A stretch of DNA of 64,000 nt, taken from the NCBI GenBank assembly GCA_019096065.1, contig JAGUCH010000009.1, positions 2,118,001 through 2,182,000 of the forward strand, given 5' to 3'. A program made the translations under genes and the position numbers. The stretch is from Paracyclopina nana (lineage: Eukaryota > Arthropoda > Copepoda > Cyclopoida > Cyclopettidae). This document shows positions 10,029 through 37,681 of this stretch, piece by piece (positions within the stretch are counted from its first letter, which is position 1; every line of letters starts with the position of its first letter). The notes under the pieces are model-generated. The model was given only the letters and a program-made list of their open reading frames with translations, ran no database searches and had not been told where the DNA came from.

Positions 10029-10056
10029 TTTTTTGTCAGGGTGACCAGAAAATTTG
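10029..10056. mobile_element. Detached end of a hAT-like MITE (TIR plus 8-bp target duplication)
   Basis: CAGGGTGACCA at 10037-10047 is a hAT-type TIR. It is preceded by TTTTTTGT (10029-10036). Both the TIR and the flank match the intact end near 25.8 kb: CAGGGTGACCA starts at 25816 and is preceded by ACAAAAAA (25808-25815), the exact reverse complement of TTTTTTGT. Only about 20 bp of the element is left here, because the left foldback element inserted at 10057. The remainder now lies at 25816-26248. Confidence 0.8.
10048..10056. repeat. 9-bp flank of the left foldback element, outer side
   Basis: GAAAATTTG abuts the element's first base. It is the exact reverse complement of CAAATTTTC at 26240-26248, the inner flank of the right element. 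Confidence 0.85.
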
Positions 10057-10134
10057 CGGTGTGTCTAAATACTGCACCAAGCTGCAATGGACTGCATCAA
10101 CCAGCACTGGACTGTACCACACTGCACCAGGCTT
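10057..10134. repeat. Foldback outer terminus with 10-bp periodic block
   Basis: After the first eight bases the sequence runs in 10-base steps of the type ACTGCACCAA/GCTGCAATGG/ACTGCATCAA, about six to seven steps. The inner terminus carries a longer block of the same kind. A 10-bp period puts each motif on the same face of the helix, which suits repeated transposase binding (inference). Confidence 0.7.
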
Positions 10135-10454
10135 GAAAAAGCTAAAAACGTCATAAAGGGGGTGTAACTTTCGCGCAACAATTTTACAAAATTGAGAAGT
10201 TACTTTTTTCCACTAATATGTGCCCAATTTTTTGTTGTTCGGTGCAATACTGGCCACTAGTTTTTCCCAGCCTTGCCAATAACCATTCCTCGATTTTTGG
10301 TATAAGTCAAATTTCATATTTTTCGTAGCGCGTTAACTATGTAGCGAAGCAGTGTGATGTCACTCAGTTCAGGCAGTTGCCTCAGCTGCATGCCTCGATG
10401 CGCGCCAAAGAGTGAGCTGAATTTCCCAAAATAGAAAACTAGAGTTTTCCTAAA

Positions 10455-13400
10455 GTTTCCTTGTACCACTAGCTTCCATGGAAAAGTAGAGTTTCAGTTA
10501 TGTCGCAAACTTTTTGTTTCAGTGGGCAACTGAAAATCGCATCGCCACTAGCATTTCGCTACTACAGCCAGCTTTCAAACTGAATTTGCCACACTGCACC
10601 AGAAGTAACTTTTTTCAAAGTGGTTTGTGGAAAAGTTTCCTTGTAGCACTGGCTTCCATAGAAAACTAGAGTTTCAGTTTTGTCGCAAACTTTTTTTCAG
10701 TGGGCAACTGAAAATCGCATTGCTACTGGCAATTTGCTACTACAGCCAGCTTTCAAACTGAATTTGTCACACTGCACCAGAAGTAACTTTTTTCAAAGTG
10801 GTTTGTGGAAAAGTTTCCTTGTAGCACTAGCTTCCATGGAAAACTAGAGTTTCAGTTTTGTCGCAAACTTTTTGTTTCAGTGGGCAACTGAAAATCGCAT
10901 TGCTACTAGCATTTCCCTACTACAGCTTTCAAACTGAATTTGCCACACTGCACCAGAAGTAACTTTTTTCAAAGTGGTTTTTGGAAAAGTTTCCTTGTAC
11001 CACTAGCTTCCATGGAAAACTAGAGTTTCAGTTTTGTTGCAAACTTTTTGTTTCAGTGGGCAACTGAAAATCGCATCGCAACTAGCATTTCGCTACTACA
11101 GCCAGCTTTCAAACTGAATTTGCCACACTGCACCAGAAGTAACTTCTTTCAAAGTGGTTTGTGGAAAAGTTTCCTTTTACCACTAGCTTCCATGGAAAAC
11201 TAGAGTTTCAGTTTTGTTGCAAACTTTTTGTTTCAGTGGGCAACTGAAAATCGCATTGCTGCTTGCAATTTGCTACTACAGCCAGCTTTCAAACTGAATT
11301 TGCCACACTGCACCAGAAGTAACTTTTTTCAAAGTGGTTTGTGGAAAAGTTTCCTTGTAGCACTAGCTTCCATGGAAAACTAGAGTTTCAGTTTTGTCGC
11401 AAACTTTTTGTTTCAGTGGGCAACTGAAAATCGCATCGCCACTAGCATTTCCCTACTACAGCTTTCAAACTGAATTTGCCACACTGCACCAGAAGTAACT
11501 TTTTTCAAAGTGGTTTGTGGAAAAGTTTCCTTGTACCACTAGCTTCCATGGAAAAGTAGAGTTTCAGTTATGTCGCAAACTTTTTGTTTCAGTGGGCAAC
11601 TGAAAATCGCATCGCCACGAGCATTACGCTACTACAGTCAGCTTTCAAACTGAATTTGCCACACTGCACCAGAAGTAACTTTTTTCAAAGTGGTTTGTGG
11701 AAAAGTTTCCTTTTACCACTAGCTTCCATGGAAAAGTAGAGTTTCAGTTATGTCGCAAACTTTTTGTTTCAGTGGGCAACTGAAAATCGCATCGCCACTA
11801 GCATTTCCCTACTACAGCTTTCAAACTGAATTTGCCACACTGCACCAGAAGTAACTTTTTTCAAAGTGGTTTGTGGAAAAGTTTCCTTTTACCACTAGCT
11901 TCCAAGGAAAACTAGAGTTTCAGTTATGTCGCAAACTTTTTGTTTCAGTGGGCAACTGAAAATCGCATCGCCACTAGCATTTCCCTACTACAGCTTTCAA
12001 ACTGAATTTGCCACACTGCACCAGAAGTAACTTTTTTCAAAGTGGTTTGTGGAAAAGTTTCCTTTTACCACTAGCTTCCATGGAAAACTAGAGTTTCAGT
12101 TTTGTCGCAAAATTTTTGTTTCAGTGGGCAACTGAAAATCGCATTGCCACTAGCATTTCACTACTACAGCCAGCTTTCAAACTGAATTTGCCACACTGCA
12201 CCAGAAGTAACTTTTTTCAAAGTGGTTTGTGGAAAAGTTTCCTTTTACCACTAGCTTCCATGGAAAACTAGAGTTTCAGTTTTGTCGCAAACTTTTTGTT
12301 TCAGTGGGCAACTGAAAATCGCATCGCCACTAGCATTTCACTACTACAGCCAGCTTTCAAACTGAATTTGCCACACTGCACCAGAAGTAACTTTTTTCAA
12401 AGTGGTTTGTGGAAAAGTTTCCTTTTACCACTAGCTTCCATGGAAAACTAGAGTTTCAGTTATGTCGCAAACTTTTTGTTTCAGTGGGCAACTGAAAATC
12501 GCATCGCCACTAGCATTTCCCTACTACAGCTTTCAAACTGAATTTGCCACACTGCACCAGAAGTAACTTTTTTCAAAGTGGTTTGTGGAAAAGTTTCCTT
12601 TTACCACTAGCTTCCATGGAAAACTAGAGTTTCAGTTTTGTCGCAAACTTTTTGTTTCAGTGGGCAACTGAAAATCGAATCGCCACTAGCATTTCGCTAC
12701 TACAGCTTTCAAACTGAATTTGCCACACTGCACCAGAAGTAACTTTTTTCAAAGTGGTTTGTGGAAAAGTTTCCTTGTAGCACTGGCTTCCATAGAAAAC
12801 TAGAGTTTCAGTTTTGTTGCAAACTTTTTGTTTCAGTGGGCAACTGAAAATCGCATTGCTACTAGCAATTTGCTACTACAGCCAGCTTTCAAACTGAATT
12901 TGCCACACTGCACCAGAAGTAACTTTTTTCAAAGTTGTTTGTGAAAAAGTAGAGTTTCAGTTTTGTCGCAAACTTTTTGTTTCAGTGGGCAACTGAAAAT
13001 CGCATCGCCACTAGCATTTCCCTACTAAAGCTTTCAAACTGAATTTGCCACACTGCACCAGAAGTAACTTTTTTCAATGTGGTTTTTGGAAAAGTTTCCT
13101 TGTAGCACTAGCTTCCATGGAAAACTAGAGTTTCAGTTTTGTCGCAAACTTTTTGTTTCAGTGGGCATCTGAAAATCGCATCGCCACTAGCATTTCGCTA
13201 CTACAGCTTTCAAACTGAATTTGCCACACTGCACCAGAAGTAACTTTTTTCAAAGTGGTTTGTGGAAAAGTTTCCTTGTAGCACTAGCTTCCATGGAAAA
13301 CTAGAGTTTCAGTTTTGTTGCAAACTTTTTGTTTCAGTGGGCAACTGAAAATCGCATTGCTGCTTGCAATTTGCTACTACAGCCAGCTTTCAAACTGAAT

Positions 13401-14320
13401 TTGCCACACTGCACCAGAAGTAACTTTTTTCAAAGTGGTTTGTGGAAAAGTTTCCTTGTAGCACTAGCTTCCATGGAAAACTAGAGTTTCAGTTTTGTCG
13501 CAAACTTTTTGTTTCAGTGGGCAACTGAAAATCGCATTGCTACTAGCATTTCCCTACTACAGCTTTCAAACTGAATTTGCCACACTGCACCAGAAGTAAC
13601 TTTTTTCAAAGTGGTTTGTGGAAAAGTTTCCTTTTACCACTAGCTTCCATGGAAAACTAGAGTTTCAGTTTTGTTGCAAACTTTTTGTTTCAGTGGGCAA
13701 CTGAAAATCGCATCGCCACTAGCATTTCGCTACTACAGCCAGCTTTCAAACTGAATTTGCCACACTGCACCAGAAGTAACTTTTTTCAAAGTGGTTTGTG
13801 GAAAAGTTTCCTTTTACCACTAGCTTCCATGGAAAAGTAGAGTTTCAGTTATGTTGCAAACTTTTTGTTTCAGTGGGCAACTGAAAATCGCATCGCCACT
13901 AGCATTTCCCTACTACAGCTTTCAAACTGAATTTGCCACACTGCACCAGAAGTAACTTTTTTCAAAGTGGTTTGTGGAAAAGTTTCCTTGTAGCACTAGC
14001 TTCCATGGAAAACTAGAGTTTCAGTTTTGTCGCAAACTTTTTGTTTCAGTGGGCAACTGAAAATCGCATCGCCACTAGCATTTCGCTACTACAGCCAGCT
14101 TTCAAACTGAATTTGCCACACTGCACCAGAAGTAACTTTTTTCAAAGTGGTTTGTGGAAAAGTTTCCTTTTACCACTAGCTTCTATGGAAAACTAGAGTT
14201 TCAGTTTTGTCGCAAACTTTTTGTTTCAGTGGGCAACTGAAAATCACATCACCACTAGCATTTTGCTACAACAGCTAGCTTTCAAACTGAATTTGCCACA
14301 CTGCACCAGAAGTAACTTTC
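10455..14320 (+). repeat. 180-bp tandem array, plus orientation, about 22 units (left outer array)
   Basis: The unit contains AGCTTCCATGGAAAACTAG, then TTTTTGTTTCAGTGGGCAAC, then CACACTGCACCAGAAGTAAC. Units are 180 bp or 176 bp, the latter lacking a CCAG. One unit near 12.95 kb carries a larger internal deletion. Every unit holds one ACTGCACCA, the motif of the element tips. Unit variants are more diverse here than in the inner array, so this outer array appears older or less homogenised. Confidence 0.9.
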
Positions 14321-14680
14321 ATGGGGTCGAATCCACCATAGGTAAACTATCTTTCTAGCTTTTCTAACTTTCTTTCACTTAAGATATGTCTTAGTCTTAA
14401 GAAAGAGAAAGCTTAATTAATTAATCAAACTATGATGCACTCACAGTAAAACTACCCTAAAAATGGTCCAACAATGATGGTATGATGATAGAAATGATGA
14501 CAGAAATAAAAAATGCTCATCACATATCATATTTATAATAAAATTTCAATTTTATCTCATTTTTTGCATGTTCATTTGATGAAATCAAAAACATTGACTA
14601 TTAACTCAATATGTTCAGAAAAATGAAAAGTGTACCCCAAAATGCTGACAAAATAAAATATGACATTAATAAATATAGTT
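14321..14680. other. Foldback loop (spacer) with a SINE-derived piece
   Basis: This is the only non-repetitive DNA between the two inverted arrays. Its first 100 bp (GGGTCGAATCCACCATAGG through AAAGAGAAAGCTTAAT) match the 3' half of the tRNA-derived SINE at 41.41 kb, starting at the B box. The rest is AT-rich with no open frame. The same loop, one base longer (a homopolymer difference), is at 33048-33408 in reverse. Confidence 0.8.
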
Positions 14681-17600
14681 CAGTTGTCCACTGAAACAAA
14701 AAGTTTGCGACAAAACTGAAACTCTAGTTTCCCATGGAAGCTAGTGGTACAAGGAAACTTTTCCACAAACCACTTTGAAAAAAGTTACTTCTGGTGCAGT
14801 GTGGCAAATTCAGTTTGAAAGCTGGCTGTAGTAGCAAAATGCTAGTGGCGATGCGATTTTCAGTTGCCCACTGAAACAAAAAGTTTGCGACAAAACTGAA
14901 ACTCTAGTTTTCCATGGAAGCTAGTGGTAAAAGGAAACTTTTCCACAAACCACTTTGAAAAAGTTACTTCTGGTGCAGTGTGGCAAATTCAGTTTGAAAG
15001 CTGGCTGTAGTAGCGAAATGCTAGTGGCGATGCGATTTTCAGTTGCCCACTGAAACAAAAAGTTTGCGACAAAACTGAAACTCTAGTCTTCCATGGAAGC
15101 TAGTGGCAAAAGGAAACTTTTCCACAAACCACTTTGAAAAAAGTTACTTCTGGTGCAGTGTGGCAAATTCAGTTTGAAAGCTGGCTGTAGTAGCGAAATG
15201 CTAGTGGCGATGCGATTTTCAGTTGCCCACTGAAACAAAAAGTTTGCGACAAAACTGAAACTCTAGTTTTCCATGGAAGCTAGTGGTAAAAGGAAACTTT
15301 TCCACAAACCACTTTGAAAAAATTACTTCTGGTGCAGTGTGGCAAATTCAGTTTGAAAGCTGGCTGTAGTAGCGAAATGCCAGTAGCAATGCGATTTTCA
15401 GTTGCCCACTGAAACAAAAAGTTTGCGACAAAACTGAAACTCTAGTCTTCCATGGAAGCTAGTGGCAAAAGGAAACTTTTCCACAAACCACTTTGAAAAA
15501 AGTTACTTCTGGTGCAGTGTGGCAAATTCAGTTTGAAAGCTGGCTGTAGTAGCGAAATGCTAGTGGCGATGCGATTTTCAGTTGCCCACTGAAACAAAAA
15601 GTTTGCGACAAAACTGAAACTCTAGTCTTCCATTGAAGCTAGTGGCAAAAGGAAACTTTTCCACAAACCACTTTGAAAAAAGTTACTTCTGGTGCAGTGT
15701 GGCAAATTCAGTTTGAAAGCTGGCTGTAGTAGCGAAATGCTAGTGGCGATGCGATTTTCAGTTGCCCACTGAAACAAAAAGTTTGCGACAAAACTGAAAC
15801 TCTAGTTTTCCATGGAAGCTAGTGGTAAAAGGAAACTTTTCCACAAACCACTTTGAAAAAAGTTACTTCTGGTGCAGTGTGGCAAATTCAGTTTGAAAGC
15901 TGGCTGTAGTAGCAAAATGCTAGTGGCGATGCGATTTTCAGTTGCCCACTGAAACAAAAAGTTTGCAACAAAACTGAAACTCTAGTCTTCCATGGAAGCT
16001 AGTGGTAAAAGGAAACTTTTCCACAAACCACTTTGAAAAAAGTTACTTCTGGTGCAGTGTGGCAAATTCAGTTTGAAAGCTGGCTGTAGTAGCGAAATGC
16101 TAGTGGCGATGCGATTTTCAGTTGCCCACTGAAACAAAAAGTTTGCGACAAAACTGAAACTCTAGTCTTCCATTGAAGCTAGTGGCAAAAGGAAACTTTT
16201 CCACAAACCACTTTGAAAAAAGTTACTTCTGGTGCAGTGTGGCAAATTCAGTTTGAAAGCTGGCTGTAGTAGCGAAATGCTAGTGGCGATGCGATTTTCA
16301 GTTGCCCACTGAAACAAAAAGTTTGCGACAAAACTGAAACTCTAGTTTTCCATGGAAGCTAGTGGCAAAAGGAAACTTTTCCACAAACCACTTTGAAAAA
16401 AGTTACTTCTGGTGCAGTGTGGCAAATTCAGTTTGAAAGCTGGCTGTAGTAGGGAAATGCCAGTAGCAATGCGATTTTCAGTTGCCCACTGAAAAAAAGT
16501 TTGCGACAAAACTGAAACTCTAGTTTTCTATGGAAGCCAGTGCTACAAGGAAACTTTTCCACAAACCACTTTGAAAAAAGTTACTTCTGGTGCAGTGTGG
16601 CAAATTCAGTTTGAAAGCTGGCTGTAGTAGCGAAATGCTAGTGGCGATGCGATTTTCAGTTGCCCACTGAAACAAAAAGTTTGCGACAAAACTGAAACTC
16701 TAGTTTTCCATGGAAGCTAGTGGCAAAAGGAAACTTTTCCACAAACCACTTTGAAAAAAGTTACTTCTGGTGCAGTGTGGCAAATTCAGTTTGAAAGCTG
16801 GCTGTAGTAGTGAAATGCTAGTGGCGATGCGATTTTCAGTTGGCCACTGAAACAAAAATTTTGCGACAAAACTGAAACTCTAGTCTTCCATGGAAGCTAG
16901 TGGCAAAAGGAAACTTTTCCACAAACCACTTTGAAAAAAGTTACTTCTGGTGCAGTGTGGCAAATTCAGTTTGAAAGCTGGCTGTAGTAGCGAAATGCTA
17001 GTGGCGATGCGATTTTCAGTTGCCCACTGAAACAAAAAGTTTGCGACAAAACTGAAACTCTAGTCTTCCATGGAAGCTAGTGGTAAAAGGAAACTTTTCC
17101 ACAAACCACTTTGAAAAAAGTTACTTCTGGTGCAGTGTGGCAAATTCAGTTTGAAAGCTGGCTGTAGTAGCGAAATGCTAGTGGCGATGCGATTTTCAGT
17201 TGCCCACTGAAACAAAAAGTTTGCGACAAAACTGAAACTCTAGTCTTCCATGGAAGCTAGTGGCAAAAGGAAACTTTTCCACAAACCACTTTGAAAAAAG
17301 TTACTTCTGGTGCAGTGTGGTAAATTCAGTTTGAAAGCTGGCTGTAGTAGCGAAATGCTAGTGGTGATGCGATTTTCAGTTGCCCACTGAAACAAAAAGT
17401 TTGCGACAAAACTGAAACTCTAGTTTTCCATGGAAGCTAGTGGTAAAAGGAAACTTTTCCACAAACCACTTTGAAAAAAGTTACTTCTGGTGCAGTGTGG
17501 CAAATTCAGTTTGAAAGCTGGCTGTAGTAGCGAAATGCTAGTGGCGATGCGATTTTCAGTTGCCCACTGAAACAAAAAGTTTGCGACAAAACTGAAACTC

Positions 17601-20600
17601 TAGTCTTCCATTGAAGCTAGTGGCAAAAGGAAACTTTTCCACAAACCACTTTGAAAAAAGTTACTTCTGGTGCAGTGTGGCAAATTCAGTTTGAAAGCTG
17701 GCTGTAGTAGCGAAATGCTAGTGGCGATGCGATTTTCAGTTGCCCACTGAAACAAAAAGTTTGCGACAAAACTGAAACTCTAGTCTTCCATGGAAGCTAG
17801 TGGCAAAAGGAAACTTTTCCACAAACCACTTTGAAAAAAGTTACTTCTGGTGCAGTGTGGCAAATTCAGTTTGAAAGCTGGCTGTAGTAGCGAAATGCTA
17901 GTGGCGATGCGATTTTCAGTTGCCCACAAAAAGTTTGCGACAAAACTGAAACTCTAGTCTTCCATGGAAGCTAGTGGCAAAAGGAAACTTTTCCACAAAC
18001 CACTTTGAAAAAAGTTACTTCTGGTGCAGTGTGGCAAATTCAGTTTGAAAGCTGGCTGTAGTAGCGAAATGCTAGTGGCGATGCGATTTTCAGTTGCCCA
18101 CTGAAACAAAAAGTTTGCGACAAAACTGAAACTCTAGTCTTCCATTGAAGCTAGTGGCAAAAGGAAACTTTTCCACAAACCACTTTGAAAAAAGTTACTT
18201 CTGGTGCAGTGTGGCAAATTCAGTTTGAAAGCTGGCTGTAGTAGCGAAATGCTAGTGGCGATGCGATTTTCAGTTGCCCACTGAAACAAAAAGTTTGCGA
18301 CAAAACTGAAACTCTAGTTTTCCATGGAAGCTAGTGGTAAAAGGAAACTTTTCCACAAACCACTTTGAAAAAAGTTACTTCTGGTGCAGTGTGGCAAATT
18401 CAGTTTGAAAGCTGGCTGTAGTAGCGAAATGCTAGTGGCGATGCGATTTTCAGTTGCCCACTGAAACAAAAAGTTTGCGACAAAACTGAAACTCTAGTCT
18501 TCCATGGAAGCTAGTGGCAAAAGGAAACTTTTCCACAAACCACTTTGAAAAAAGTTACTTCTGGTGCAGTGTGGCAAATTCAGTTTGAAAGCTGGCTGTA
18601 GTAGCGAAATGCTAGTGGCGATGCGATTTTCAGTTGCCCACTGAAACAAAAAGTTTGCGACAAAACTGAAACTCTAGTCTTCCATGGAAGCTAGTGGTAA
18701 AAGGAAACTTTTCCACAAACCACTTTGAAAAAAGTTACTTCTGGTGCAGTGTGGCAAATTCAGTTTGAAAGCTGGCTGTAGTAGCGAAATGCTAGTGGCG
18801 ATGCGATTTTCAGTTGCCCACTGAAACAAAAAGTTTGCGACAAAACTGAAACTCTAGTCTTCCATGGAAGCTAGTGGCAAAAGGAAACTTTTCCACAAAC
18901 CACTTTGAAAAAAGTTACTTCTGGTGCAGTGTGGTAAATTCAGTTTGAAAGCTGGCTGTAGTAGCGAAATGCTAGTGGTGATGCGATTTTCAGTTGCCCA
19001 CTGAAACAAAAAGTTTGCGACAAAACTGAAACTCTAGTTTTCCATGGAAGCTAGTGGTAAAAGGAAACTTTTCCACAAACCACTTTGAAAAAAGTTACTT
19101 CTGGTGCAGTGTGGCAAATTCAGTTTGAAAGCTGGCTGTAGTAGCGAAATGCTAGTGGCGATGCGATTTTCAGTTGCCCACTGAAACAAAAAGTTTGCGA
19201 CAAAACTGAAACTCTAGTCTTCCATTGAAGCTAGTGGCAAAAGGAAACTTTTCCACAAACCACTTTGAAAAAAGTTACTTCTGGTGCAGTGTGGCAAATT
19301 CAGTTTGAAAGCTGGCTGTAGTAGCGAAATGCTAGTGGCGATGCGATTTTCAGTTGCCCACTGAAACAAAAAGTTTGCGACAAAACTGAAACTCTAGTCT
19401 TCCATGGAAGCTAGTGGCAAAAGGAAACTTTTCCACAAACCACTTTGAAAAAAGTTACTTCTGGTGCAGTGTGGCAAATTCAGTTTGAAAGCTGGCTGTA
19501 GTAGCGAAATGCTAGTGGCGATGCGATTTTCAGTTGCCCACTGAAACAAAAAGTTTGCGACAAAACTGAAACTCTAGTCTTCCATGGAAGCTAGTGGCAA
19601 AAGGAAACTTTTCCACAAACCACTTTGAAAAAAGTTACTTCTGGTGCAGTGTGGCAAATTCAGTTTGAAAGCTGGCTGTAGTAGCGAAATGCTAGTGGCG
19701 ATGCGATTTTCAGTTGCCCACTGAAACGAAAAGTTTGCGACAAAACTGAAACTCTAGTCTTCCATTGAAGCTAGTGGCAAAAGGAAACTTTTCCACAAAC
19801 CACTTTGAAAAAAGTTACTTCTGGTGCAGTGTGGCAAATTCAGTTTGAAAGCTGGCTGTAGTAGCGAAATGCTAGTGGCGATGCGATTTTCAGTTGCCCA
19901 CTGAAACAAAAAGTTTGCGACAAAACTGAAACTCTAGTTTTCCATGGAAGCTAGTGGTAAAAGGAAACTTTTCCACAAACCACTTTGAAAAAAGTTACTT
20001 CTGGTGCAGTGTGGCAAATTCAGTTTGAAAGCTGGCTGTAGTAGCGAAATGCTAGTGGCGATGCGATTTTCAGTTGCCCACTGAAACAAAAAGTTTGCGA
20101 CAAAACTGAAACTCTAGTCTTCCATGGAAGCTAGTGGGGAAGGGAAACTTTTCCACAAACCACTTTGAAAAAAGTTACTTCTGGTGCAGTGTGGCAAATT
20201 CAGTTTGAAAGCTGGCTGTAGTAGCGAAATGCTAGTGGCGATGCGATTTTCAGTTGCCCACTGAAACAAAAAGTTTGCGACAAAACTGAAACTCTAGTCT
20301 TCCATGGAAGCTAGTGGCAAAAGGAAACTTTTCCACAAACCACTTTGAAAAAAGTTACTTCTGGTGCAGTGTGGCAAATTCAGTTTGAAAGCTGGCTGTA
20401 GTAGCGAAATGCTAGTGGCGATGCGATTTTCAGTTGCCCACTGAAACAAAAAGTTTGCGACAAAACTGAAACTCTAGTCTTCCATGGAAGCTAGTGGCAA
20501 AAGGAAACTTTTCCACAAACCACTTTGAAAAAAGTTACTTCTGGTGCAGTGTGGCAAATTCAGTTTGAAAGCTGGCTGTAGTAGCGAAATGCTAGTGGCG

Positions 20601-23094: not shown

Positions 23095-23146
23095 ATGAAA
23101 CATTTCAAGTCACACACTGACTATGAAGTTTGTGACAAAACTTTAA

Positions 23147-23368: not shown

Positions 23369-23519
23369 TAAGTCTTTTTTTCCATTGAATCTAGTGCTAC
23401 TAGGAATTTTTCAAGCATTTGAAATCAATTACCTTTTCTGTTGAGGCGGCTTTAGTTTATTTATGTATGTGTTTTTCTGGTGCATTCTGGTTTAGCCTAT
23501 TATTAGCACCTTGCAGATT

Positions 23520-25606: not shown

Positions 25607-25807
25607 ACTTTACCATATATTATTGTAAAAAACGAACCAAGCATGCAATATAAAAACAAAATTTAAAAAGACTCTTATTTTATCATGTTTTCAAAATTCC
25701 GTCCTGAAAATCTTGGCATTATTTTGATCTTAAAAAAAATTCTTAAATATTTGCATTTTGCCGTTCGATTAAATTATTCGCGAAATCACCTCGGGTCATA
25801 ATTGGTA

Positions 25808-26248: not shown

Positions 26249-26380
26249 GGCCGCGACTAAATACTGCACCAAACTGATCTGGACTGCATTAGACTGCAAT
26301 GTACTGCAATGGACTGCACCAAACTACACCGACGTTCACCAACCTGCACCACCCAGCACCAACCTGCATCAATCTGCAAG
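26249..26380. repeat. Foldback inner terminus (right) with 10-bp periodic block
   Basis: From CTAAATACTG the sequence steps by ten bases (CACCAAACTG, ATCTGGACTG, CATTAGACTG, CAATGTACTG and so on) for about twelve steps. Confidence 0.75.
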
Positions 26381-26521
26381 GTGCTAATAATAGGCTAAAC
26401 CAGAATGCACCAGAAAAACACATACATAAATAAACTAAAGCCGCCTCAACAGAAAAGGTAATTGATTTCAAATGCTTGAAAAATTCCTAGTAGCACTAGA
26501 TTCAATGGAAAAAAAGACTTA

Positions 26522-26743
26522 GGCCCTGTTCACCTGCATTATTATTAGCGAAATAACGGGCAATATTATGCTGATGTTTGCAAATATATGGTATTTGTAA
26601 AATCATTTTTCAGATTTTGACTCTGAAATATGTCTATTGGTACCAAAAGCCACCCTACACAAATATAAAAATGCTCAGTTTGTCAGTATTTCTCTCCGAT
26701 ATTTTGCCAAAATATCCGCCATAATAAGCAGGTGAACAGGCCC
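26522..26743. mobile_element. PIF/Harbinger-like MITE nested in the right element
   Basis: Reverse-complement copy of the MITE at 23147-23368, with the same ends and TTA on both sides (26519-26521 and 26744-26746). Same position within the foldback, so it is the same original insertion. Confidence 0.75.
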
Positions 26744-26795
26744 TTAAAGTTTTGTCACAAACTTCATAGTCAGTGTGTGACTTGAAATGTTTCAT

Positions 26796-29700
26796 GCCAG
26801 CTTTTAAACTGAATTTGCCACACTGCACCAGAAGTAACTTTTTTCAAAGTGGTTTGTGGAAAAGTTTCCTTTTACCACTAGCTTCCATGGAAAACTAGAG
26901 TTTCAGTTTTGTCGCAAACTTTTTGTTTCAGTGGGCAACTGAAAATCGCATCGTCACTAGCATTTCGCTACTACAGCCAGCTTTCAAACTGAATTTGCCA
27001 CACTGCACCAGAAGTAACTTTTTTCAAAGTGGTTTGTGGAAAAGTTTCCTTTTACCACTAGCTTCCATGGAAAACTAGAGTTTCAGTTTTGTCGCAAACT
27101 TTTTGTTTCAGTGGGCAACTGAAAATCGCATCGCCACTAGCATTTCGCTACTACAGCCAGCTTTCAAACTGAATTTGCCACACTGCACCAGAAGTAACTT
27201 TTTTCAAAGTGGTTTGTGGAAAAGTTTCCTTTTGCCACTAGCTTCAATGGAAGACTAGAGTTTCAGTTTTGTCGCAAACTTTTTGTTTCAGTGGGCAACT
27301 GAAAATCGCATCGCCACTAGCATTTCGCTACTACAGCCAGCTTTCAAACTGAATTTGCCACACTGCACCAGAAGTAACTTTTTTCAAAGTGGTTTGTGGA
27401 AAAGTTTCCTTTTGCCACTAGCTTCCATGGAAGACTAGAGTTTCAGTTTTGTCGCAAACATTTTGTTTCAGTGGGCAACTGAAAATCGCATCGCCACTAG
27501 CATTTCGCTACTACAGCCAGCTTTCAAACTGAATTTGCCACACTGCACCAGAAGTAACTTTTTTCAAAGTGGTTTGTGGAAAAGTTTCCTTTACCACTAG
27601 CTTCCATGGAAGACTAGAGTTTCAGTTTTGTCGCAAACTTTTTGTTTCAGTGGGCAACTGAAAATCGCATCGCCACTAGCATTTCGCTACTACAGCCAGC
27701 TTTCAAACTGAATTTGCCACACTGCACCAGAAGTAACTTTTTTCAAAGTGGTTTGTGGAAAAGTTTCCTTTTACCACTAGCTTCCATGGAAAACTAGAGT
27801 TTCAGTTTTGTCGCAAACTTTTTGTTTCAGTGGGCAACTGAAAATCGCATCGCCACTAGCATTTCGCTACTACAGCCAGCTTTCAAACTGAATTTGCCAC
27901 ACTGCACCAGAAGTAACTTTTTCAAAGTGGTTTGTGGAAAAGTTTCCTTTGCCACTAGCTTCAATGGAAGACTAGAGTTTCAGTTTTGTCGCAAACTTTT
28001 GTTTCAGTGGGCAACTGAAAATCGCATCGCCACTAGCATTTCGCTACTACAGCCAGCTTTCAAACTGAATTTGCCACACTGCACCAGAAGTAACTTTTTT
28101 CGAAGTGGTTTGTGGCAAAGTTTTCGGTTGCCACTAGCTTCCATGGAAGACTAGAGTTTCAGTTTTGTCGCAAACTTTTTGTTTCAGTGGGCAACTGAAA
28201 ATCGCATCGCCACTAGCATTTCGCTACTACAGCCAGCTTTCAAACTGAATTTGCCACACTGCACCAGAAGTAACTTTTTTCAAAGTGGTTTGTGGAAAAG
28301 TTTCCTTTTGCCACTAGCTTCCATGGAAGACTAGAGTTTCAGTTTTGTCGCAAACTTTTTGTTTCAGTGGGCAACTGAAAATCGCATCGCCACTAGCATT
28401 TCGCTACTACAGCCAGCTTTCAAACTGAATTTGCCACACTGCACCAGAAGTAACTTTTTTCAAAGTGGTTTGTGGAAAAGTTTCTCTTCGCAACTAGCTT
28501 CAATGGAAGACTAGAGTTTCAGTTTTGTCGCAAACTTTTTGTTTCAGTGGGCAACTGAAAATCGCATCGCCACTAGCATTTCGCTACTACAGCCAGCTTT
28601 CAAACTGAATTTGCCACACTGCACCAGAAGTAACTTTTTCAAAGTGGTTTGTGGAAAAGTTTCCTTTTGCCACTAGCTTCCATGGAAGACTAGAGTTTCA
28701 GTTTTGTCGCAAACTTTTGTTTCAGTGGGCAACTGAAAATCGCATCGCCACTAGCATTTCGCTACTACAGCCAGCTTTTAAACTGAATTTGCCACACTGC
28801 ACCAGAAGTAACTTTTTTCAAAGTGGTTTGTGGAAAAGTTTCCTTTACCACTAGCTTCCATGGAAAACTAGAGTTTCAGTTTTGTCGCAAACTTTTGTTT
28901 CAGTGGGCAACTGAAAATCGCATCGTCACTAGCATTTCGCTACTACAGCCAGCTTTCAAACTGAATTTGCCACACTGCACCAGAAGTAACTTTTTCAAAG
29001 TGGTTTGTGGAAAAGTTTCCTTTTACCACTAGCTTCCATGGAAAACTAGAGTTTCAGTTTTGTCGCAAACTTTTTGTTTCAGTGGGCAACTGAAAATCGC
29101 ATCGCCACTAGCATTTCGCTACTACAGCCAGCTTTCAAACTGAATTTGCCACACTGCACCAGAAGTAACTTTTTCAAAGTGGTTTGTGGAAAAGTTTCCT
29201 TTGCCACTAGCTTCAATGGAAGACTAGAGTTTCAGTTTTGTCGCAAACTTTTTGTTTCAGTGGGCAACTGAAAATCGCATCGCCACTAGCATTTCGCTAC
29301 TACAGCCAGCTTTCAAACTGAATTTGCCACACTGCACCAGAAGTAACTTTTTTCAAAGTGGTTTGTGGAAAAGTTTCCTTTTGCCACTAGCTTCCATGGA
29401 AGACTAGAGTTTCAGTTTTGTCGCAAACTTTTTGTTTCAGTGGGCAACTGAAAATCGCATCGCCACTAGCATTTCGCTACTACAGCCAGCTTTCAAACTG
29501 AATTTGCCACACTGCACCAGAAGTAACTTTTTTCAAAGTGGTTTGTGGAAAAGTTTCCTTTTGCCACTAGCTTCCATGGAAGACTAGAGTTTCAGTTTTG
29601 TCGCAAACTTTTTGTTTCAGTGGGCAACTGAAAATCGCATCGCCACTAGCATTTCGCTACTACAGCCAGCTTTCAAACTGAATTTGCCACACTGCACCAG

Positions 29701-32700
29701 AAGTAACTTTTTTCAAAGTGGTTTGTGGAAAAGTTTCCTTTTACCACTAGCTTCCATGGAAGACTAGAGTTTCAGTTTTGTCGCAAACTTTTTGTTTCAG
29801 TGGGCAACTGAAAATCGCATCGCCACTAGCATTTCGCTACTACAGCCAGCTTTCAAACTGAATTTGCCACACTGCACCAGAAGTAACTTTTTTCAAAGTG
29901 GTTTGTGGAAAAGTTTCCTTTTACCACTAGCTTCCATGGAAGACTAGAGTTTCAGTTTTGTCGCAAACTTTTTGTTTCAGTGGGCAACTGAAAATCGCAT
30001 CGCCACTAGCATTTCGCTACTACAGCCAGCTTTCAAACTGAATTTGCCACACTGCACCAGAAGTAACTTTTTTCAAAGTGGTTTGTGGAAAAGTTTCCTT
30101 TTGCCACTAGCTTCAATGGAAGACTAGAGTTTCAGTTTTGTCGCAAACTTTTTGTTTCAGTGGGCAACTGAAAATCGCATCGCCACTAGCATTTCGCTAC
30201 TACAGCCAGCTTTCAAACTGAATTTGCCACACTGCACCAGAAGTAACTTTTTTCAAAGTGGTTTGTGGAAAAGTTTCCTTTTGCCACTAGCTTCCATGGA
30301 AGACTAGAGTTTCAGTTTTGTCGCAAACTTTTTGTTTCAGTGGGCAACTGAAAATCGCATCGCCACTAGCATTTCGCTACTACAGCCAGCTTTCAAACTG
30401 AATTTGCCACACTGCACCAGAAGTAACTTTTTTCAAAGTGGTTTGTGGAAAAGTTTCCTTTTGCCACTAGCTTCCATGGAAGACTAGAGTTTCAGTTTTG
30501 TCGCAAACTTTTTGTTTCAGTGGGCAACTGAAAATCGCATCGCCACTAGCATTTCGCTACTACAGCCAGCTTTCAAACTGAATTTGCCACACTGCACCAG
30601 AAGTAACTTTTTTCAAAGTGGTTTGTGGAAAAGTTTCCTTTTACCACTAGCTTCCATGGAAGACTAGAGTTTCAGTTTTGTCGCAAACTTTTTGTTTCAG
30701 TGGGCAACTGAAAATCGCATCGCCACTAGCATTTCGCTACTACAGCCAGCTTTCAAACTGAATTTGCCACACTGCACCAGAAGTAACTTTTTTCAAAGTG
30801 GTTTGTGGAAAAGTTTCCTTTTGCCACTAGCTTCCATGGAAGACTAGAGTTTCAGTTTTGTCGCAAAATTTTTGTTTCAGTGGCCAACTGAAAATCGCAT
30901 CGCCACTAGCATTTCACTACTACAGCCAGCTTTCAAACTGAATTTGCCACACTGCACCAGAAGTAACTTTTTTCAAAGTGGTTTGTGGAAAAGTTTCCTT
31001 TTGCCACTAGCTTCCATGGAAAACTAGAGTTTCAGTTTTGTCGCAAACTTTTTGTTTCAGTGGGCAACTGAAAATCGCATCGCCACTAGCATTTCGCTAC
31101 TACAGCCAGCTTTCAAACTGAATTTGCCACACTGCACCAGAAGTAACTTTTTTCAAAGTGGTTTGTGGAAAAGTTTCCTTGTAGCACTGGCTTCCATAGA
31201 AAACTAGAGTTTCAGTTTTGTCGCAAACTTTTTTTCAGTGGGCAACTGAAAATCGCATTGCTACTGGCATTTCCCTACTACAGCCAGCTTTCAAACTGAA
31301 TTTGCCACACTGCACCAGAAGTAACTTTTTTCAAAGTGGTTTGTGGAAAAGTTTCCTTTTGCCACTAGCTTCCATGGAAAACTAGAGTTTCAGTTTTGTC
31401 GCAAACTTTTTGTTTCAGTGGGCAACTGAAAATCGCATCGCCACTAGCATTTCGCTACTACAGCCAGCTTTCAAACTGAATTTGCCACACTGCACCAGAA
31501 GTAACTTTTTTCAAAGTGGTTTGTGGAAAAGTTTCCTTTTGCCACTAGCTTCAATGGAAGACTAGAGTTTCAGTTTTGTCGCAAACTTTTTGTTTCAGTG
31601 GGCAACTGAAAATCGCATCGCCACTAGCATTTCGCTACTACAGCCAGCTTTCAAACTGAATTTGCCACACTGCACCAGAAGTAACTTTTTTCAAAGTGGT
31701 TTGTGGAAAAGTTTCCTTTTACCACTAGCTTCCATGGAAGACTAGAGTTTCAGTTTTGTTGCAAACTTTTTGTTTCAGTGGGCAACTGAAAATCGCATCG
31801 CCACTAGCATTTTGCTACTACAGCCAGCTTTCAAACTGAATTTGCCACACTGCACCAGAAGTAACTTTTTTCAAAGTGGTTTGTGGAAAAGTTTCCTTTT
31901 ACCACTAGCTTCCATGGAAAACTAGAGTTTCAGTTTTGTCGCAAACTTTTTGTTTCAGTGGGCAACTGAAAATCGCATCGCCACTAGCATTTCGCTACTA
32001 CAGCCAGCTTTCAAACTGAATTTGCCACACTGCACCAGAAGTAACTTTTTTCAAAGTGGTTTGTGGAAAAGTTTCCTTTTGCCACTAGCTTCAATGGAAG
32101 ACTAGAGTTTCAGTTTTGTCGCAAACTTTTTGTTTCAGTGGGCAACTGAAAATCGCATCGCCACTAGCATTTCGCTACTACAGCCAGCTTTCAAACTGAA
32201 TTTGCCACACTGCACCAGAAGTAACTTTTTTCAAAGTGGTTTGTGGAAAAGTTTCCTTTTGCCACTAGCTTCCATGGAAGACTAGAGTTTCAGTTTTGTC
32301 GCAAACTTTTTGTTTCAGTGGGCAACTGAAAATCGCATTGCTACTGGCATTTCGCTACTACAGCCAGCTTTCAAACTGAATTTGCCACACTGCACCAGAA
32401 GTAATTTTTTCAAAGTGGTTTGTGGAAAAGTTTCCTTTTACCACTAGCTTCCATGGAAAACTAGAGTTTCAGTTTTGTCGCAAACTTTTTGTTTCAGTGG
32501 GCAACTGAAAATCGCATCGCCACTAGCATTTCGCTACTACAGCCAGCTTTCAAACTGAATTTGCCACACTGCACCAGAAGTAACTTTTTTCAAAGTGGTT
32601 TGTGGAAAAGTTTCCTTTTGCCACTAGCTTCCATGGAAGACTAGAGTTTCAGTTTTGTCGCAAACTTTTTGTTTCAGTGGGCAACTGAAAATCGCATCGC

Positions 32701-33047
32701 CACTAGCATTTCGCTACTACAGCCAGCTTTCAAACTGAATTTGCCACACTGCACCAGAAGTAACTTTTTTCAAAGTGGTTTGTGGAAAAGTTTCCTTTTA
32801 CCACTAGCTTCCATGGAAAACTAGAGTTTCAGTTTTGTCGCAAACTTTTTGTTTCAGTGGGCAACTGAAAATCGCATCGCCACTAGCATTTTGCTACTAC
32901 AGCCAGCTTTCAAACTGAATTTGCCACACTGCACCAGAAGTAACTTTTTTCAAAGTGGTTTGTGGAAAAGTTTCCTTGTACCACTAGCTTCCATGGGAAA
33001 CTAGAGTTTCAGTTTTGTCGCAAACTTTTTGTTTCAGTGGACAACTG
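26796..33047 (+). repeat. 180-bp tandem array, plus orientation, about 35 units (right inner array)
   Basis: Mirror of 14681-23094 but about 12 units shorter. Between about 27.6 and 29.2 kb several units show one-base losses in T runs (CTTTTTC for CTTTTTTC) not seen in neighbouring units, which may be sequencing noise. Confidence 0.9.
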
Positions 33048-33408
33048 AACTATATTTATTAATGTCATATTTTATTTTGTCAGCATTTTGGGGTACACTT
33101 TTCATTTTTCTGAACATATTGAGTTAATAGTCAATGTTTTTTGATTTCATCAAATGAACATGCAAAAAATGAGATAAAATTGAAATTTTATTATAAATAT
33201 GATATGTGATGAGCATTTTTTATTTCTGTCATCATTTCTATCATCATACCATCATTGTTGGACCATTTTTAGGGTAGTTTTACTGTGAGTGCATCATAGT
33301 TTGATTAATTAATTAAGCTTTCTCTTTCTTAAGACTAAGACATATCTTAAGTGAAAGAAAGTTAGAAAAGCTAGAAAGATAGTTTACCTATGGTGGATTC
33401 GACCCCAT
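33048..33408. other. Foldback loop of the right element
   Basis: Reverse complement of 14321-14680, 361 bp against 360; the difference I can see is a run of six versus five A/T. It contains the same SINE-derived piece. Confidence 0.8.
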
Positions 33409-36400
33409 GAAAGTTACTTCTGGTGCAGTGTGGCAAATTCAGTTTGAAAGCTAGCTGTTGTAGCAAAATGCTAGTGGTGATGTGATTTTCAGTTGCCCAC
33501 TGAAACAAAAAGTTTGCGACAAAACTGAAACTCTAGTTTTCCATAGAAGCTAGTGGTAAAAGGAAACTTTTCCACAAACCACTTTGAAAAAAGTTACTTC
33601 TGGTGCAGTGTGGCAAATTCAGTTTGAAAGCTGGCTGTAGTAGCGAAATGCTAGTGGCGATGCGATTTTCAGTTGCCCACTGAAACAAAAAGTTTGCGAC
33701 AAAACTGAAACTCTAGTTTTCCATGGAAGCTAGTGCTACAAGGAAACTTTTCCACAAACCACTTTGAAAAAAGTTACTTCTGGTGCAGTGTGGCAAATTC
33801 AGTTTGAAAGCTGTAGTAGGGAAATGCTAGTGGCGATGCGATTTTCAGTTGCCCACTGAAACAAAAAGTTTGCAACATAACTGAAACTCTACTTTTCCAT
33901 GGAAGCTAGTGGTAAAAGGAAACTTTTCCACAAACCACTTTGAAAAAAGTTACTTCTGGTGCAGTGTGGCAAATTCAGTTTGAAAGCTGGCTGTAGTAGC
34001 GAAATGCTAGTGGCGATGCGATTTTCAGTTGCCCACTGAAACAAAAAGTTTGCAACAAAACTGAAACTCTAGTTTTCCATGGAAGCTAGTGGTAAAAGGA
34101 AACTTTTCCACAAACCACTTTGAAAAAAGTTACTTCTGGTGCAGTGTGGCAAATTCAGTTTGAAAGCTGTAGTAGGGAAATGCTAGTAGCAATGCGATTT
34201 TCAGTTGCCCACTGAAACAAAAAGTTTGCGACAAAACTGAAACTCTAGTTTTCCATGGAAGCTAGTGCTACAAGGAAACTTTTCCACAAACCACTTTGAA
34301 AAAAGTTACTTCTGGTGCAGTGTGGCAAATTCAGTTTGAAAGCTGGCTGTAGTAGCAAATTGCAAGCAGCAATGCGATTTTCAGTTGCCCACTGAAACAA
34401 AAAGTTTGCAACAAAACTGAAACTCTAGTTTTCCATGGAAGCTAGTGCTACAAGGAAACTTTTCCACAAACCACTTTGAAAAAAGTTACTTCTGGTGCAG
34501 TGTGGCAAATTCAGTTTGAAAGCTGTAGTAGCGAAATGCTAGTGGCGATGCGATTTTCAGATGCCCACTGAAACAAAAAGTTTGCGACAAAACTGAAACT
34601 CTAGTTTTCCATGGAAGCTAGTGCTACAAGGAAACTTTTCCAAAAACCACATTGAAAAAAGTTACTTCTGGTGCAGTGTGGCAAATTCAGTTTGAAAGCT
34701 TTAGTAGGGAAATGCTAGTGGCGATGCGATTTTCAGTTGCCCACTGAAACAAAAAGTTTGCGACAAAACTGAAACTCTACTTTTTCACAAACAACTTTGA
34801 AAAAAGTTACTTCTGGTGCAGTGTGGCAAATTCAGTTTGAAAGCTGGCTGTAGTAGCAAATTGCTAGTAGCAATGCGATTTTCAGTTGCCCACTGAAACA
34901 AAAAGTTTGCAACAAAACTGAAACTCTAGTTTTCTATGGAAGCCAGTGCTACAAGGAAACTTTTCCACAAACCACTTTGAAAAAAGTTACTTCTGGTGCA
35001 GTGTGGCAAATTCAGTTTGAAAGCTGTAGTAGCGAAATGCTAGTGGCGATTCGATTTTCAGTTGCCCACTGAAACAAAAAGTTTGCGACAAAACTGAAAC
35101 TCTAGTTTTCCATGGAAGCTAGTGGTAAAAGGAAACTTTTCCACAAACCACTTTGAAAAAAGTTACTTCTGGTGCAGTGTGGCAAATTCAGTTTGAAAGC
35201 TGTAGTAGGGAAATGCTAGTGGCGATGCGATTTTCAGTTGCCCACTGAAACAAAAAGTTTGCGACATAACTGAAACTCTAGTTTTCCATGGAAGCTAGTG
35301 GTAAAAGGAAACTTTTCCACAAACCACTTTGAAAAAAGTTACTTCTGGTGCAGTGTGGCAAATTCAGTTTGAAAGCTGGCTGTAGTAGTGAAATGCTAGT
35401 GGCGATGCGATTTTCAGTTGCCCACTGAAACAAAAAGTTTGCGACAAAACTGAAACTCTAGTTTTCCATGGAAGCTAGTGGTAAAAGGAAACTTTTCCAC
35501 AAACCACTTTGAAAAAAGTTACTTCTGGTGCAGTGTGGCAAATTCAGTTTGAAAGCTGGCTGTAGTAGTGAAATGCTAGTGGCAATGCGATTTTCAGTTG
35601 CCCACTGAAACAAAAATTTTGCGACAAAACTGAAACTCTAGTTTTCCATGGAAGCTAGTGGTAAAAGGAAACTTTTCCACAAACCACTTTGAAAAAAGTT
35701 ACTTCTGGTGCAGTGTGGCAAATTCAGTTTGAAAGCTGTAGTAGGGAAATGCTAGTGGCGATGCGATTTTCAGTTGCCCACTGAAACAAAAAGTTTGCGA
35801 CATAACTGAAACTCTAGTTTTCCTTGGAAGCTAGTGGTAAAAGGAAACTTTTCCACAAACCACTTTGAAAAAAGTTACTTCTGGTGCAGTGTGGCAAATT
35901 CAGTTTGAAAGCTGTAGTAGGGAAATGCTAGTGGCGATGCGATTTTCAGTTGCCCACTGAAACAAAAAGTTTGCGACATAACTGAAACTCTACTTTTCCA
36001 TGGAAGCTAGTGGTAAAAGGAAACTTTTCCACAAACCACTTTGAAAAAAGTTACTTCTGGTGCAGTGTGGCAAATTCAGTTTGAAAGCTGACTGTAGTAG
36101 CGTAATGCTCGTGGCGATGCGATTTTCAGTTGCCCACTGAAACAAAAAGTTTGCGACATAACTGAAACTCTACTTTTCCATGGAAGCTAGTGGTACAAGG
36201 AAACTTTTCCACAAACCACTTTGAAAAAAGTTACTTCTGGTGCAGTGTGGCAAATTCAGTTTGAAAGCTGTAGTAGGGAAATGCTAGTGGCGATGCGATT
36301 TTCAGTTGCCCACTGAAACAAAAAGTTTGCGACAAAACTGAAACTCTAGTTTTCCATGGAAGCTAGTGCTACAAGGAAACTTTTCCACAAACCACTTTGA

Positions 36401-37275
36401 AAAAAGTTACTTCTGGTGCAGTGTGGCAAATTCAGTTTGAAAGCTGGCTGTAGTAGCAAATTGCAAGCAGCAATGCGATTTTCAGTTGCCCACTGAAACA
36501 AAAAGTTTGCAACAAAACTGAAACTCTAGTTTTCCATGGAAGCTAGTGGTAAAAGGAAACTTTTCCACAAACCACTTTGAAAGAAGTTACTTCTGGTGCA
36601 GTGTGGCAAATTCAGTTTGAAAGCTGGCTGTAGTAGCGAAATGCTAGTTGCGATGCGATTTTCAGTTGCCCACTGAAACAAAAAGTTTGCAACAAAACTG
36701 AAACTCTAGTTTTCCATGGAAGCTAGTGGTACAAGGAAACTTTTCCAAAAACCACTTTGAAAAAAGTTACTTCTGGTGCAGTGTGGCAAATTCAGTTTGA
36801 AAGCTGTAGTAGGGAAATGCTAGTAGCAATGCGATTTTCAGTTGCCCACTGAAACAAAAAGTTTGCGACAAAACTGAAACTCTAGTTTTCCATGGAAGCT
36901 AGTGCTACAAGGAAACTTTTCCACAAACCACTTTGAAAAAAGTTACTTCTGGTGCAGTGTGACAAATTCAGTTTGAAAGCTGGCTGTAGTAGCAAATTGC
37001 CAGTAGCAATGCGATTTTCAGTTGCCCACTGAAAAAAAGTTTGCGACAAAACTGAAACTCTAGTTTTCTATGGAAGCCAGTGCTACAAGGAAACTTTTCC
37101 ACAAACCACTTTGAAAAAAGTTACTTCTGGTGCAGTGTGGCAAATTCAGTTTGAAAGCTGGCTGTAGTAGCGAAATGCTAGTGGCGATGCGATTTTCAGT
37201 TGCCCACTGAAACAAAAAGTTTGCGACATAACTGAAACTCTACTTTTCCATGGAAGCTAGTGGTACAAGGAAACT
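33409..37275 (-). repeat. 180-bp tandem array, minus orientation, about 22 units (right outer array)
   Basis: Mirror of 10455-14320. The same unusual units occur in the same order, for example the shortened unit near 34.78 kb corresponding to 12.95 kb. Confidence 0.9.
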
Positions 37276-37672
37276 TTAGGAAAACTCTAGTTTTCTATTT
37301 TGGGAAATTCAGCTCACTCTTTGGCGCGCATCGAGGCATGCAGCTGAGGCAACTGCCTGAACTGAGTGACATCACACTGCTTCGCTACATAGTTAACGCG
37401 CTACGAAAAATATGAAATTTGACTTATACCAAAAATCGAGGAATGGTTATTGGCAAGGCTGGGAAAAACTAGTGGCCAGTATTGCACCGAACAACAAAAA
37501 ATTGGGCACATATTAGTGGAAAAAAGTAACTTCTCAATTTTGTAAAATTGTTGCGCGAAAGTTACACCCCCTTTATGACGTTTTTAGCTTTTTCAAGCCT
37601 GGTGCAGTGTGGTACAGTCCAGTGCTGGTTGATGCAGTCCATTGCAGCTTGGTGCAGTATTTAGACACACCG

Positions 37673-37681
37673 GCTAAATTG
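37673..37681. repeat. 9-bp flank of the right foldback element, outer side
   Basis: GCTAAATTG is the exact reverse complement of CAATTTAGC at 23642-23650. Confidence 0.85.

What the first reader, a model, noticed from the sequence alone, without database searches (positions are those of the whole stretch)
10048..37681. Crossed 9-bp target duplications record an inversion of the PPM1L segment between two foldback elements
Seen directly: flanks are GAAAATTTG (10048-10056), CAATTTAGC (23642-23650), CAAATTTTC (26240-26248) and GCTAAATTG (37673-37681). No element has matching flanks of its own, yet outer-left is the exact reverse complement of inner-right, and inner-left that of outer-right. Flipping 23642-26248 turns both pairs into perfect 9-bp direct duplications, one around each element. 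Two chance 9-mer matches are very unlikely. Known: Drosophila FB elements make 9-bp duplications and promote rearrangements. Inference: recombination between the two inverted elements flipped the phosphatase gene relative to its flanks.
Basis: partly seen in the sequence, partly recalled or inferred. Interest (0 to 1): 0.95.

Follow-up and report, generated by a model that had tools for sequence, protein, structure and literature searches.

The report
Foldback-transposon-flanked inversion of a phosphatase gene
A small piece of chromosome holding one phosphatase gene sits flipped between two nearly identical, mirror-image copies of a jumping element, and swapped insertion footprints plus a second transposon cut in two show that it was flipped; such flips are known from fruit flies, and this looks like a one-gene case in what is probably a copepod.

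Summary
The crossed 9-mers are real, exact and not chance. Of 210 pairs among 21 ends of this element family in the genome, 9 share a flanking 9-mer: 7 are the two ends of one copy (ordinary 9-bp target duplications) and 2 are the window's crossed pairs.

Independent proof was found. The right end of the phosphatase segment is a hAT-like MITE lacking its last 11 bp. Those 11 bp, with the MITE's own matching 8-bp duplication, lie beyond the left foldback in opposite orientation. All 29 other MITE copies examined continue from this point into that terminus. So the left flank and the segment's right end were once adjacent: 23642-26248 is inverted relative to the left flank. The right side rests on the 9-mers alone.

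The two foldbacks share 7,264 bp without a substitution. This suggests a very recent local origin and blocks the usual test between ectopic recombination (leading) and one-step hybrid-element insertion. A mis-oriented assembly is not excluded without reads.

Mechanism and signature are known from Drosophila Galileo and FB (In(2L)Cy): a new member of a known kind, notable for small size, single gene and double footprint.

The parts
10029..10036 (-). one copy of the split MITE's 8-bp target duplication (ACAAAAAA on the - strand)
   Evidence: its partner is 25808-25815
10037..10047 (-). terminal 11 bp (TGGTCACCCTG on the - strand) of the hAT-like MITE, cut off from its body at 25816-26248
   Evidence: CAGGGTGACCA occurs twice on the + strand of the whole window and TGGTCACCCTG not at all
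10048..10056 (+). 9-mer GAAAATTTG, outer-left flank (target duplication a)
10057..23641 (+). foldback element 1 (13,585 bp), end A to end B
10452..14319 (+). element 1, A-side arm: array of about 180-bp units
   Evidence: 21 anchors
14320..14678 (+). element 1 spacer between the arms
14679..23094 (-). element 1, B-side arm: the same kind of array in opposite orientation
   Evidence: 45 anchors
23642..23650 (+). 9-mer CAATTTAGC, inner-left flank (reverse complement of duplication b)
23642..26248 (+). inverted 2,607-bp segment
23881..25606 (+). PPM1L-like PP2C phosphatase gene, 4 exons in my model (23881-24270, 24385-24988, 25047-25177, 25232-25606), open frame of 499 aa, wholly inside the segment
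25808..25815 (+). other copy of the MITE's 8-bp target duplication (ACAAAAAA)
25816..26248 (+). body of the hAT-like MITE, lacking its last 11 bp (aligned to other copies from 25828 on)
26240..26248 (+). 9-mer CAAATTTTC, inner-right flank (reverse complement of duplication a); part of the MITE
26249..37672 (-). foldback element 2 (11,424 bp), same family, opposite orientation to element 1
26796..33049 (+). element 2, B-side arm
   Evidence: 35 anchors
33050..33409 (-). element 2 spacer
33410..37277 (-). element 2, A-side arm, no substitution against element 1
37673..37681 (+). 9-mer GCTAAATTG, outer-right flank (target duplication b)

Best explanation
Two copies of one foldback family stand 2.6 kb apart in opposite orientation around a PPM1L-like gene. 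One inserted 11 bp from the end of a hAT-like MITE downstream of the gene (target a), the other 239 bp upstream of its start codon (target b), each making a 9-bp target duplication. Shown: the insertions, the family's 9-bp rule, the crossed duplications and the split MITE; hence the 2,607-bp segment between them is inverted relative to the left flank directly, and to the right flank by the 9-mers. Inferred: the second copy arose by a recent local transposition of the first, and homologous (ectopic) recombination between the two copies then flipped the segment, leaving both elements and the gene whole. Copies this long, alike and close should flip again, so both orientations may coexist in the population (inference).
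For: Crossed 9-mers at exact element boundaries. 7 of 8 complete copies outside the window have perfect own 9-bp duplications, so the 9-mers are true footprints. Split MITE with its 8-bp duplication ACAAAAAA on both far-apart pieces; 29 of 29 other copies examined (of 39 listed; only 40 of 187 candidates were scored) continue into TGGTC directly after this position, 17 of 29 with the exact 20-mer join; 23 of 26 copies with clean ends have exact 8-bp duplications. The joined 444-bp MITE is 99.3% identical to the nearest copy over positions 13-444. Element 1 and element 2 share 7,264 bp from the outer ends with two 1-base homopolymer differences and no substitution, and B-arm unit variants run in the same order at both ends of the array: ideal partners for recombination. 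[quoted passage not shown]
Against: No crossover point can be seen, because the copies are too alike to show chimerism. The identity is also what one-step hybrid-element insertion predicts (PMC2775673 section 10 part 1). A third copy, C3:9485138, is nearly as close in the parts compared (0 substitutions in the 381-bp spacer, 1 in 391 at the A end), so independent insertions from one young lineage are possible. One of 8 complete copies elsewhere breaks the duplication rule. The right breakpoint has only the 9-mers: its flank is single-copy. No second individual, outgroup or read data were available. Element 2 shows clustered 1-base homopolymer losses and clustered mismatches in its B arm (about 27.5-29.2 kb), a sign of imperfect consensus there.
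Confidence: 0.5

Rival explanations
1. Hybrid-element insertion (aberrant transposition): there was only one insertion. The A end of the element on one chromatid and the B end of its sister or allelic copy were used together as one transposon and inserted about 2.6 kb away. In one step this yields two identical copies in opposite orientation, the segment between them inverted, and exactly these crossed duplications (my own derivation; the published figure was not seen, only its legend).
For: Needs one event after the first insertion. Accounts for identity of the copies (7,264 bp without a substitution), inverse orientation and closeness at once; about 0.003 pairs within 2.6 kb are expected for 11 random insertions. 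Delprat et al. state that its outcome is 'strikingly similar' to ectopic recombination except that the copies are identical.
Against: The copies differ by about 12 repeat units in the middle of the B arm (2,161 bp), which needs later array change. A local jump plus recombination or gene conversion also gives identity. Miller et al. 2020 knew of no wild inversion made this way (PMC7642927 passage). No transposase partner was identified for this family.
Confidence: 0.22
2. Assembly error: the animal carries both elements with ordinary direct duplications, and the assembler attached the 2.6-kb segment the wrong way round because the elements are near-identical inverted repeats of 11-14 kb.
For: Long near-identical inverted repeats are a classic place for this (general knowledge); homopolymer-type differences suggest noisy consensus in element 2; no reads available.
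Against: The elements are not collapsed copies of each other: their B arms differ in the middle (45 against 35 anchors), so each seems to have been assembled with its own variants. Linking those variants to the outer flanks needs reads of roughly 7.3 kb or more (identical tract), short of the whole element. No N in the window (base counts).
Confidence: 0.23
3. Chance: the four 9-mers match without any history.
For: None found.
Against: About 4e-11 for both pairs; the 201 other pairs of family ends give no stray match; the split MITE is independent.
Confidence: 0.005
4. Mobile composite: the two elements and the gene moved as one unit into this site.
For: The whole 27.6 kb is a large inverted-repeat structure with A ends outside.
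Against: The outermost flanks are not a direct 9-bp duplication of each other, and the MITE split across the left element ties segment and left flank to one original site.
Confidence: 0.015

Closest known systems
Drosophila melanogaster In(2L)Cy, between two FB elements (PMC7642927; section 20 and passages read)
   Same: Foldback elements with repeat-block arms; crossed 9-bp duplications; two copies more like each other than like any other known copy; different number of repeat blocks in one arm.
   Different: That inversion spans about 10.6 Mb (breakpoints given in section 20) and was verified with long reads; this one is 2.6 kb with one gene, in a different animal, with a second transposon cut at one breakpoint; not read-verified.
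Drosophila buzzatii inversions made by Galileo, e.g. 2z3 (PMC2775673; abstract passage, other passages and section 10 part 1 read)
   Same: Oppositely oriented copies at both breakpoints with exchanged target duplications.
   Different: Galileo is a P-superfamily element with 7-bp duplications; its copies there are visibly chimeric, here they are too alike to tell.
Tm1 Mutator/Foldback elements of root-knot nematodes (PMC3169594; passages read)
   Same: Foldback-type composite TIRs, mostly 9-bp duplications, two distinct 7-bp terminal motifs outside the inverted repeat, like the differing first bases of ends A and B here.
   Different: About 14-bp units; a transposase-coding member is known; none identified here.
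Tetris of Drosophila virilis (PMC4079207; abstract and outline only)
   Same: Apparently non-autonomous foldback with ~220-bp tandem units in the TIRs.
   Different: Sequences not compared; the abstract reports a role in satellite DNA, and end sequences shared with DAIBAM, an element implicated in inversions.
hAT MITEs (recalled, general knowledge)
   Same: The split element has short TIRs CAGGGTGACCA/TGGTCACCCTG and 8-bp duplications.
   Different: No transposase relative was searched for; the hAT label rests on TIR form and duplication length.

Membership tests
Foldback-type transposon (structural class) | long inverted arms built of tandem subrepeats around a middle segment | tested here: met
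   arrays 10452-14319 / 14679-23094 and 26796-33049 / 33410-37277 in opposite orientation around ~360 bp
Foldback-type transposon (structural class) | 9-bp target duplication on insertion (as in Drosophila FB) | tested here: met
   7 of 8 complete copies outside the window have a perfect own 9-bp duplication; C9:3600353-3604276 does not
Drosophila FB family proper | sequence relationship to FB/NOF | not tested
   no FB sequence was fetched; likeness is structural only
Mutator-like elements (MULE) | mobilised by a MULE transposase whose own element shares these ends | tested here: inconclusive
Transposon-mediated inversion by ectopic recombination | two homologous copies in opposite orientation with exchanged target duplications | tested here: met
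Transposon-mediated inversion by ectopic recombination | both copies chimeric | tested here: inconclusive
   copies too alike to tell
Transposon-mediated inversion by ectopic recombination | opposite order in the non-inverted state | tested here: met
   left breakpoint only, through 29 paralogous MITE copies; no outgroup; right breakpoint not testable by paralogy
Hybrid-element insertion | two identical copies, crossed duplications, no deletion | tested here: inconclusive
   crossed duplications met; no loss seen at the left site; copies alike except array length and a noisy stretch
hAT-like MITE (split element) | short TIRs and 8-bp target duplications | tested here: met
   of 29 copies examined 26 have clean ends, 23 of them exact 8-bp duplications, 1 with 7 of 8, 2 not matching in register

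The most novel reading that the evidence does not exclude
The inversion was made in a single step by hybrid-element insertion of one foldback element in a natural genome, which would explain why the two flanking copies share 7.3 kb without a substitution, lie only 2.6 kb apart and are mirror images; the resulting pair of 11-14 kb inverted repeats may since have turned the gene into a segment that flips back and forth in the population.
Probability: 0.22. Interest if true: 0.62.

Novelty: new member of a known kind. Interest (0 to 1): 0.45.

Why it matters
If the assembly is right, this is a clean one-gene example of a foldback-driven inversion outside Drosophila, readable from one genome because two different transposons each left a footprint that the flip pulled apart. 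It offers a direct test of a question left open in the fly literature, whether near-identical flanking copies mean hybrid-element insertion or local transposition plus recombination. It also names a locus where recurrent flipping of a single gene could be measured with long reads. It further shows that a transposon split by an inversion breakpoint can serve as an internal outgroup when no related genome is available.

Tried and rejected
Chance was rejected. A mobile composite was rejected because the outermost flanks do not form a direct duplication and the split MITE ties segment and left flank together. A genome pattern search for the terminal motif returned nothing because I set the gap lengths wrongly (in the window the gaps are 3 and 13, I asked for 4-10); it was replaced by DNA searches for both ends. 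The right flank was searched for repeats that might span the right breakpoint: single-copy, no help. The one complete copy with unmatched flanks, C9:3600353-3604276, was searched for a partner: left flank single-copy, right flank runs into a high-copy repeat mostly from about base 57 on, and no other end in the count carries either 9-mer. The 22.5-kb copy on C2 was read (20 kb of its interior) in case it was the autonomous element: ORFs of 150 aa or more look like low-complexity repeats in one 10-kb half and there are none in the other. Two of five MULE places were read for family ends: none at C6, a weak likeness at C5. Further paper searches gave the papers cited; four papers were opened in all.
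Full report
OBSERVATION. The four 9-mers are at the stated coordinates, and the crossed reverse-complement relation is exact. They abut the element ends without gap: both outer ends begin CGGTGTGTCTAAATACTGCACC (end A), both inner ends GGCCGCGACTAAATACTGCACC (end B). Two random background 9-mers of the window are reverse complements with probability 6.2e-6, so both pairs by chance is about 4e-11.

THE ELEMENTS. Each consists of two arrays of about 180-bp units in opposite orientation around a spacer of about 360 bp: 10057-23641 (13,585 bp) and 26249-37672 (11,424 bp). The genome (91.95 Mb, 10 contigs; the window is C9:2118001-2182000) gives 11 A ends, one of them degenerate, and 11 B ends. I compared the flanks of 21 ends: all 11 B ends and 10 A ends; the degenerate A end on C6 was fetched but left out because its terminus is not exact. 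Of 210 pairs, 9 share a flanking 9-mer: 7 are the two ends of one copy, i.e. ordinary 9-bp duplications, and 2 are the crossed pairs here. Not fitting: one complete copy (C9:3600353-3604276) has unmatched flanks and no partner, and one B end (C5:1753322) has no A end found.

INDEPENDENT PROOF OF THE INVERSION. The end of the segment (25828-26248) matches a repeat family of which one search lists 39 other places (40 of 187 candidates were scored, so this is a lower bound). I read 29 of these 39 (L010-L038). In all 29 the sequence continues, at the position where the window runs into the foldback, into TGGTC..., the other terminus of a TIR element; the exact 20-mer CAAATTTTC+TGGTCACCCTG is present in 17 of 29. 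In the window this terminus lies at 10037-10047, beyond the left foldback, in reverse orientation. It is flanked by TTTTTTGT (10029-10036), the reverse complement of ACAAAAAA, and ACAAAAAA stands at 25808-25815, just before the other TIR, CAGGGTGACCA, at 25816. Of 29 copies 26 have clean ends; 23 of these have an exact 8-bp duplication, one has 7 of 8, and 2 do not match in register. So a MITE with its own 8-bp duplication was intact before the foldback entered it, and its two pieces now face the wrong way. CAGGGTGACCA occurs only at these two places in the window. ACAAAAAA alone would be weak, being low in complexity; with the 11-bp terminus in exact register it is not. This shows that 23642-26248 is inverted relative to the left flank. 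For the right flank only the 9-mers speak, because 37673-38200 is single-copy.

THE GENE. The segment holds a complete PP2C-type phosphatase; my model has four exons with GT-AG introns and 499 aa. Among the 120 listed of 592 hits, the named best are 'protein phosphatase 1L-like' of Tigriopus californicus and 'probable protein phosphatase 2C 49' of Eurytemora carolleeae, 39% identity over 99% of the query each; an unnamed sequence scores higher at 41%. Both are copepods (recalled), so the host is probably a copepod (inference); the species is unknown. The start codon lies 239 bp from the left edge and the stop 209 bp before the MITE, so the flip leaves the coding region intact.

HOW SIMILAR THE TWO ELEMENTS ARE. 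From the outer ends they share 7,264 bp with two 1-base homopolymer differences and no substitution; on the 4,640-bp A side there are no substitutions. In the B arm the first 13 anchored units correspond (12 identical, the first differing by one homopolymer base). The last 16 can be paired in order by my reading: 7 of 16 are identical types, the rest differ by 1-base losses and short mismatch clusters. The middle differs; the whole elements differ by 2,161 bp, about 12 units. Part of the B arm of element 2 therefore looks like imperfect consensus. The copy at C3:9485138 also has no substitution against element 1 in the 381-bp spacer and one in 391 at its A end, so a closely related copy exists elsewhere; the five other close spacers differ by 3-12 substitutions. 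For 11 random insertions about 0.003 pairs within 2.6 kb are expected, so the second copy most likely arose locally.

MECHANISM. Leading: local transposition in opposite orientation, then ectopic recombination. Delprat et al. (PMC2775673, section 10 part 1 of 2 read) state that hybrid-element insertion from one site gives a strikingly similar outcome, but with identical rather than chimeric copies. Here the copies are nearly identical, so the pattern does not choose; recombination and gene conversion would also keep such copies alike. Miller et al. (PMC7642927, section 20 and passages read) describe In(2L)Cy with FB elements, crossed 9-bp duplications, near-identical copies and different block numbers, and prefer transposition followed by recombination with the donor; they add that they know of no wild inversion made by hybrid-element insertion. 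I give recombination 0.5, hybrid-element insertion 0.22, assembly error 0.23.

ASSEMBLY. With near-identical inverted repeats of 11-14 kb, a mis-oriented segment is a serious rival. Against it: the elements do not look like copies of one collapsed node (their B-arm middles differ), and about 7.3 kb must be bridged to link these middles to the outer flanks, within reach of long reads. Which reads were used is unknown to me.

THE TRANSPOSASE. None is identified. The 20 kb read of the long C2 copy hold no convincing ORF. Of five MULE-domain places I read around two. At C6 no family end was found. At C5:6359976 two adjacent copies of CTAAATACCGCACAC lie about 2 kb from the domain; they resemble the end motif CTAAATACTGCACCA with 3 or fewer mismatches. 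I estimate, without a call, about 0.1 such match by chance in that stretch, so it is a lead only. In the same stretch a nearly palindromic repeat of at least 0.9 kb has pieces 77-90% identical to the foldback spacer region.

KNOWN OR NEW. The signature and the recombination mechanism are known in natural or laboratory Drosophila chromosomes. I found no report for copepods: the search 'copepod + foldback + transposable element' returned one paper, on Drosophila (listing only), and a search with crustacean, microinversion, foldback element and target site duplication listed 6 of 53 papers, none on such an inversion by title (listing only). These searches cover open-licence papers only. Verdict: new member of a known kind, with unusually clean double footprints.

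Noticed in passing
G000:C9:3600353-3604276 (L071, L072): A complete copy of the same foldback family whose two flanking 9-mers (AACTTTTAG and CGATGTCTT) match neither each other nor any other end in the count: possibly a deletion or another rearrangement.
   Followed up: partly
G000:C2:12964378-12986868 (L085, L086, L089, L090): A 22.5-kb copy of the family with a perfect 9-bp duplication; about 13 kb of it match the arms of element 1 without a break and the middle is full of short low-complexity repeats.
   Followed up: partly
G000:C5:1753322 (L082): A B end with no A end found; further arm pieces lie upstream.
   Followed up: partly
G000:C5:6359001-6363900 (L092): A MULE-domain frame with two adjacent likenesses of the foldback end motif about 2 kb away, and a nearly palindromic repeat of at least 0.9 kb related to the foldback spacer in the same stretch: a lead to the autonomous partner.
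   Followed up: partly
window 27500-29200: Element 2 shows clustered 1-base homopolymer losses and short clusters of mismatches against element 1, looking like imperfect consensus.
   Followed up: partly
window 54267-63997: Two long frames on the minus strand (2,667 and 575 aa) that look like an LTR-type retroelement (by eye, not searched).
   Followed up: no
window 44789-48289: Three long minus-strand ORFs (500, 132, 458 aa) without any Pfam match at 0.001; the first seems to end in a membrane anchor (by eye).
   Followed up: partly
window 39395-39593: Two exact tandem copies of a 100-bp unit.
   Followed up: no
window 42934-43586: Six copies of a 101-bp tandem unit.
   Followed up: no
G000, L010-L038: A large family of about 440-bp hAT-like MITEs (CAGGGTGACCA ends, 8-bp duplications), 88-99% identical to the window copy; 40 places were listed by a search that gives lower bounds.
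   Followed up: partly
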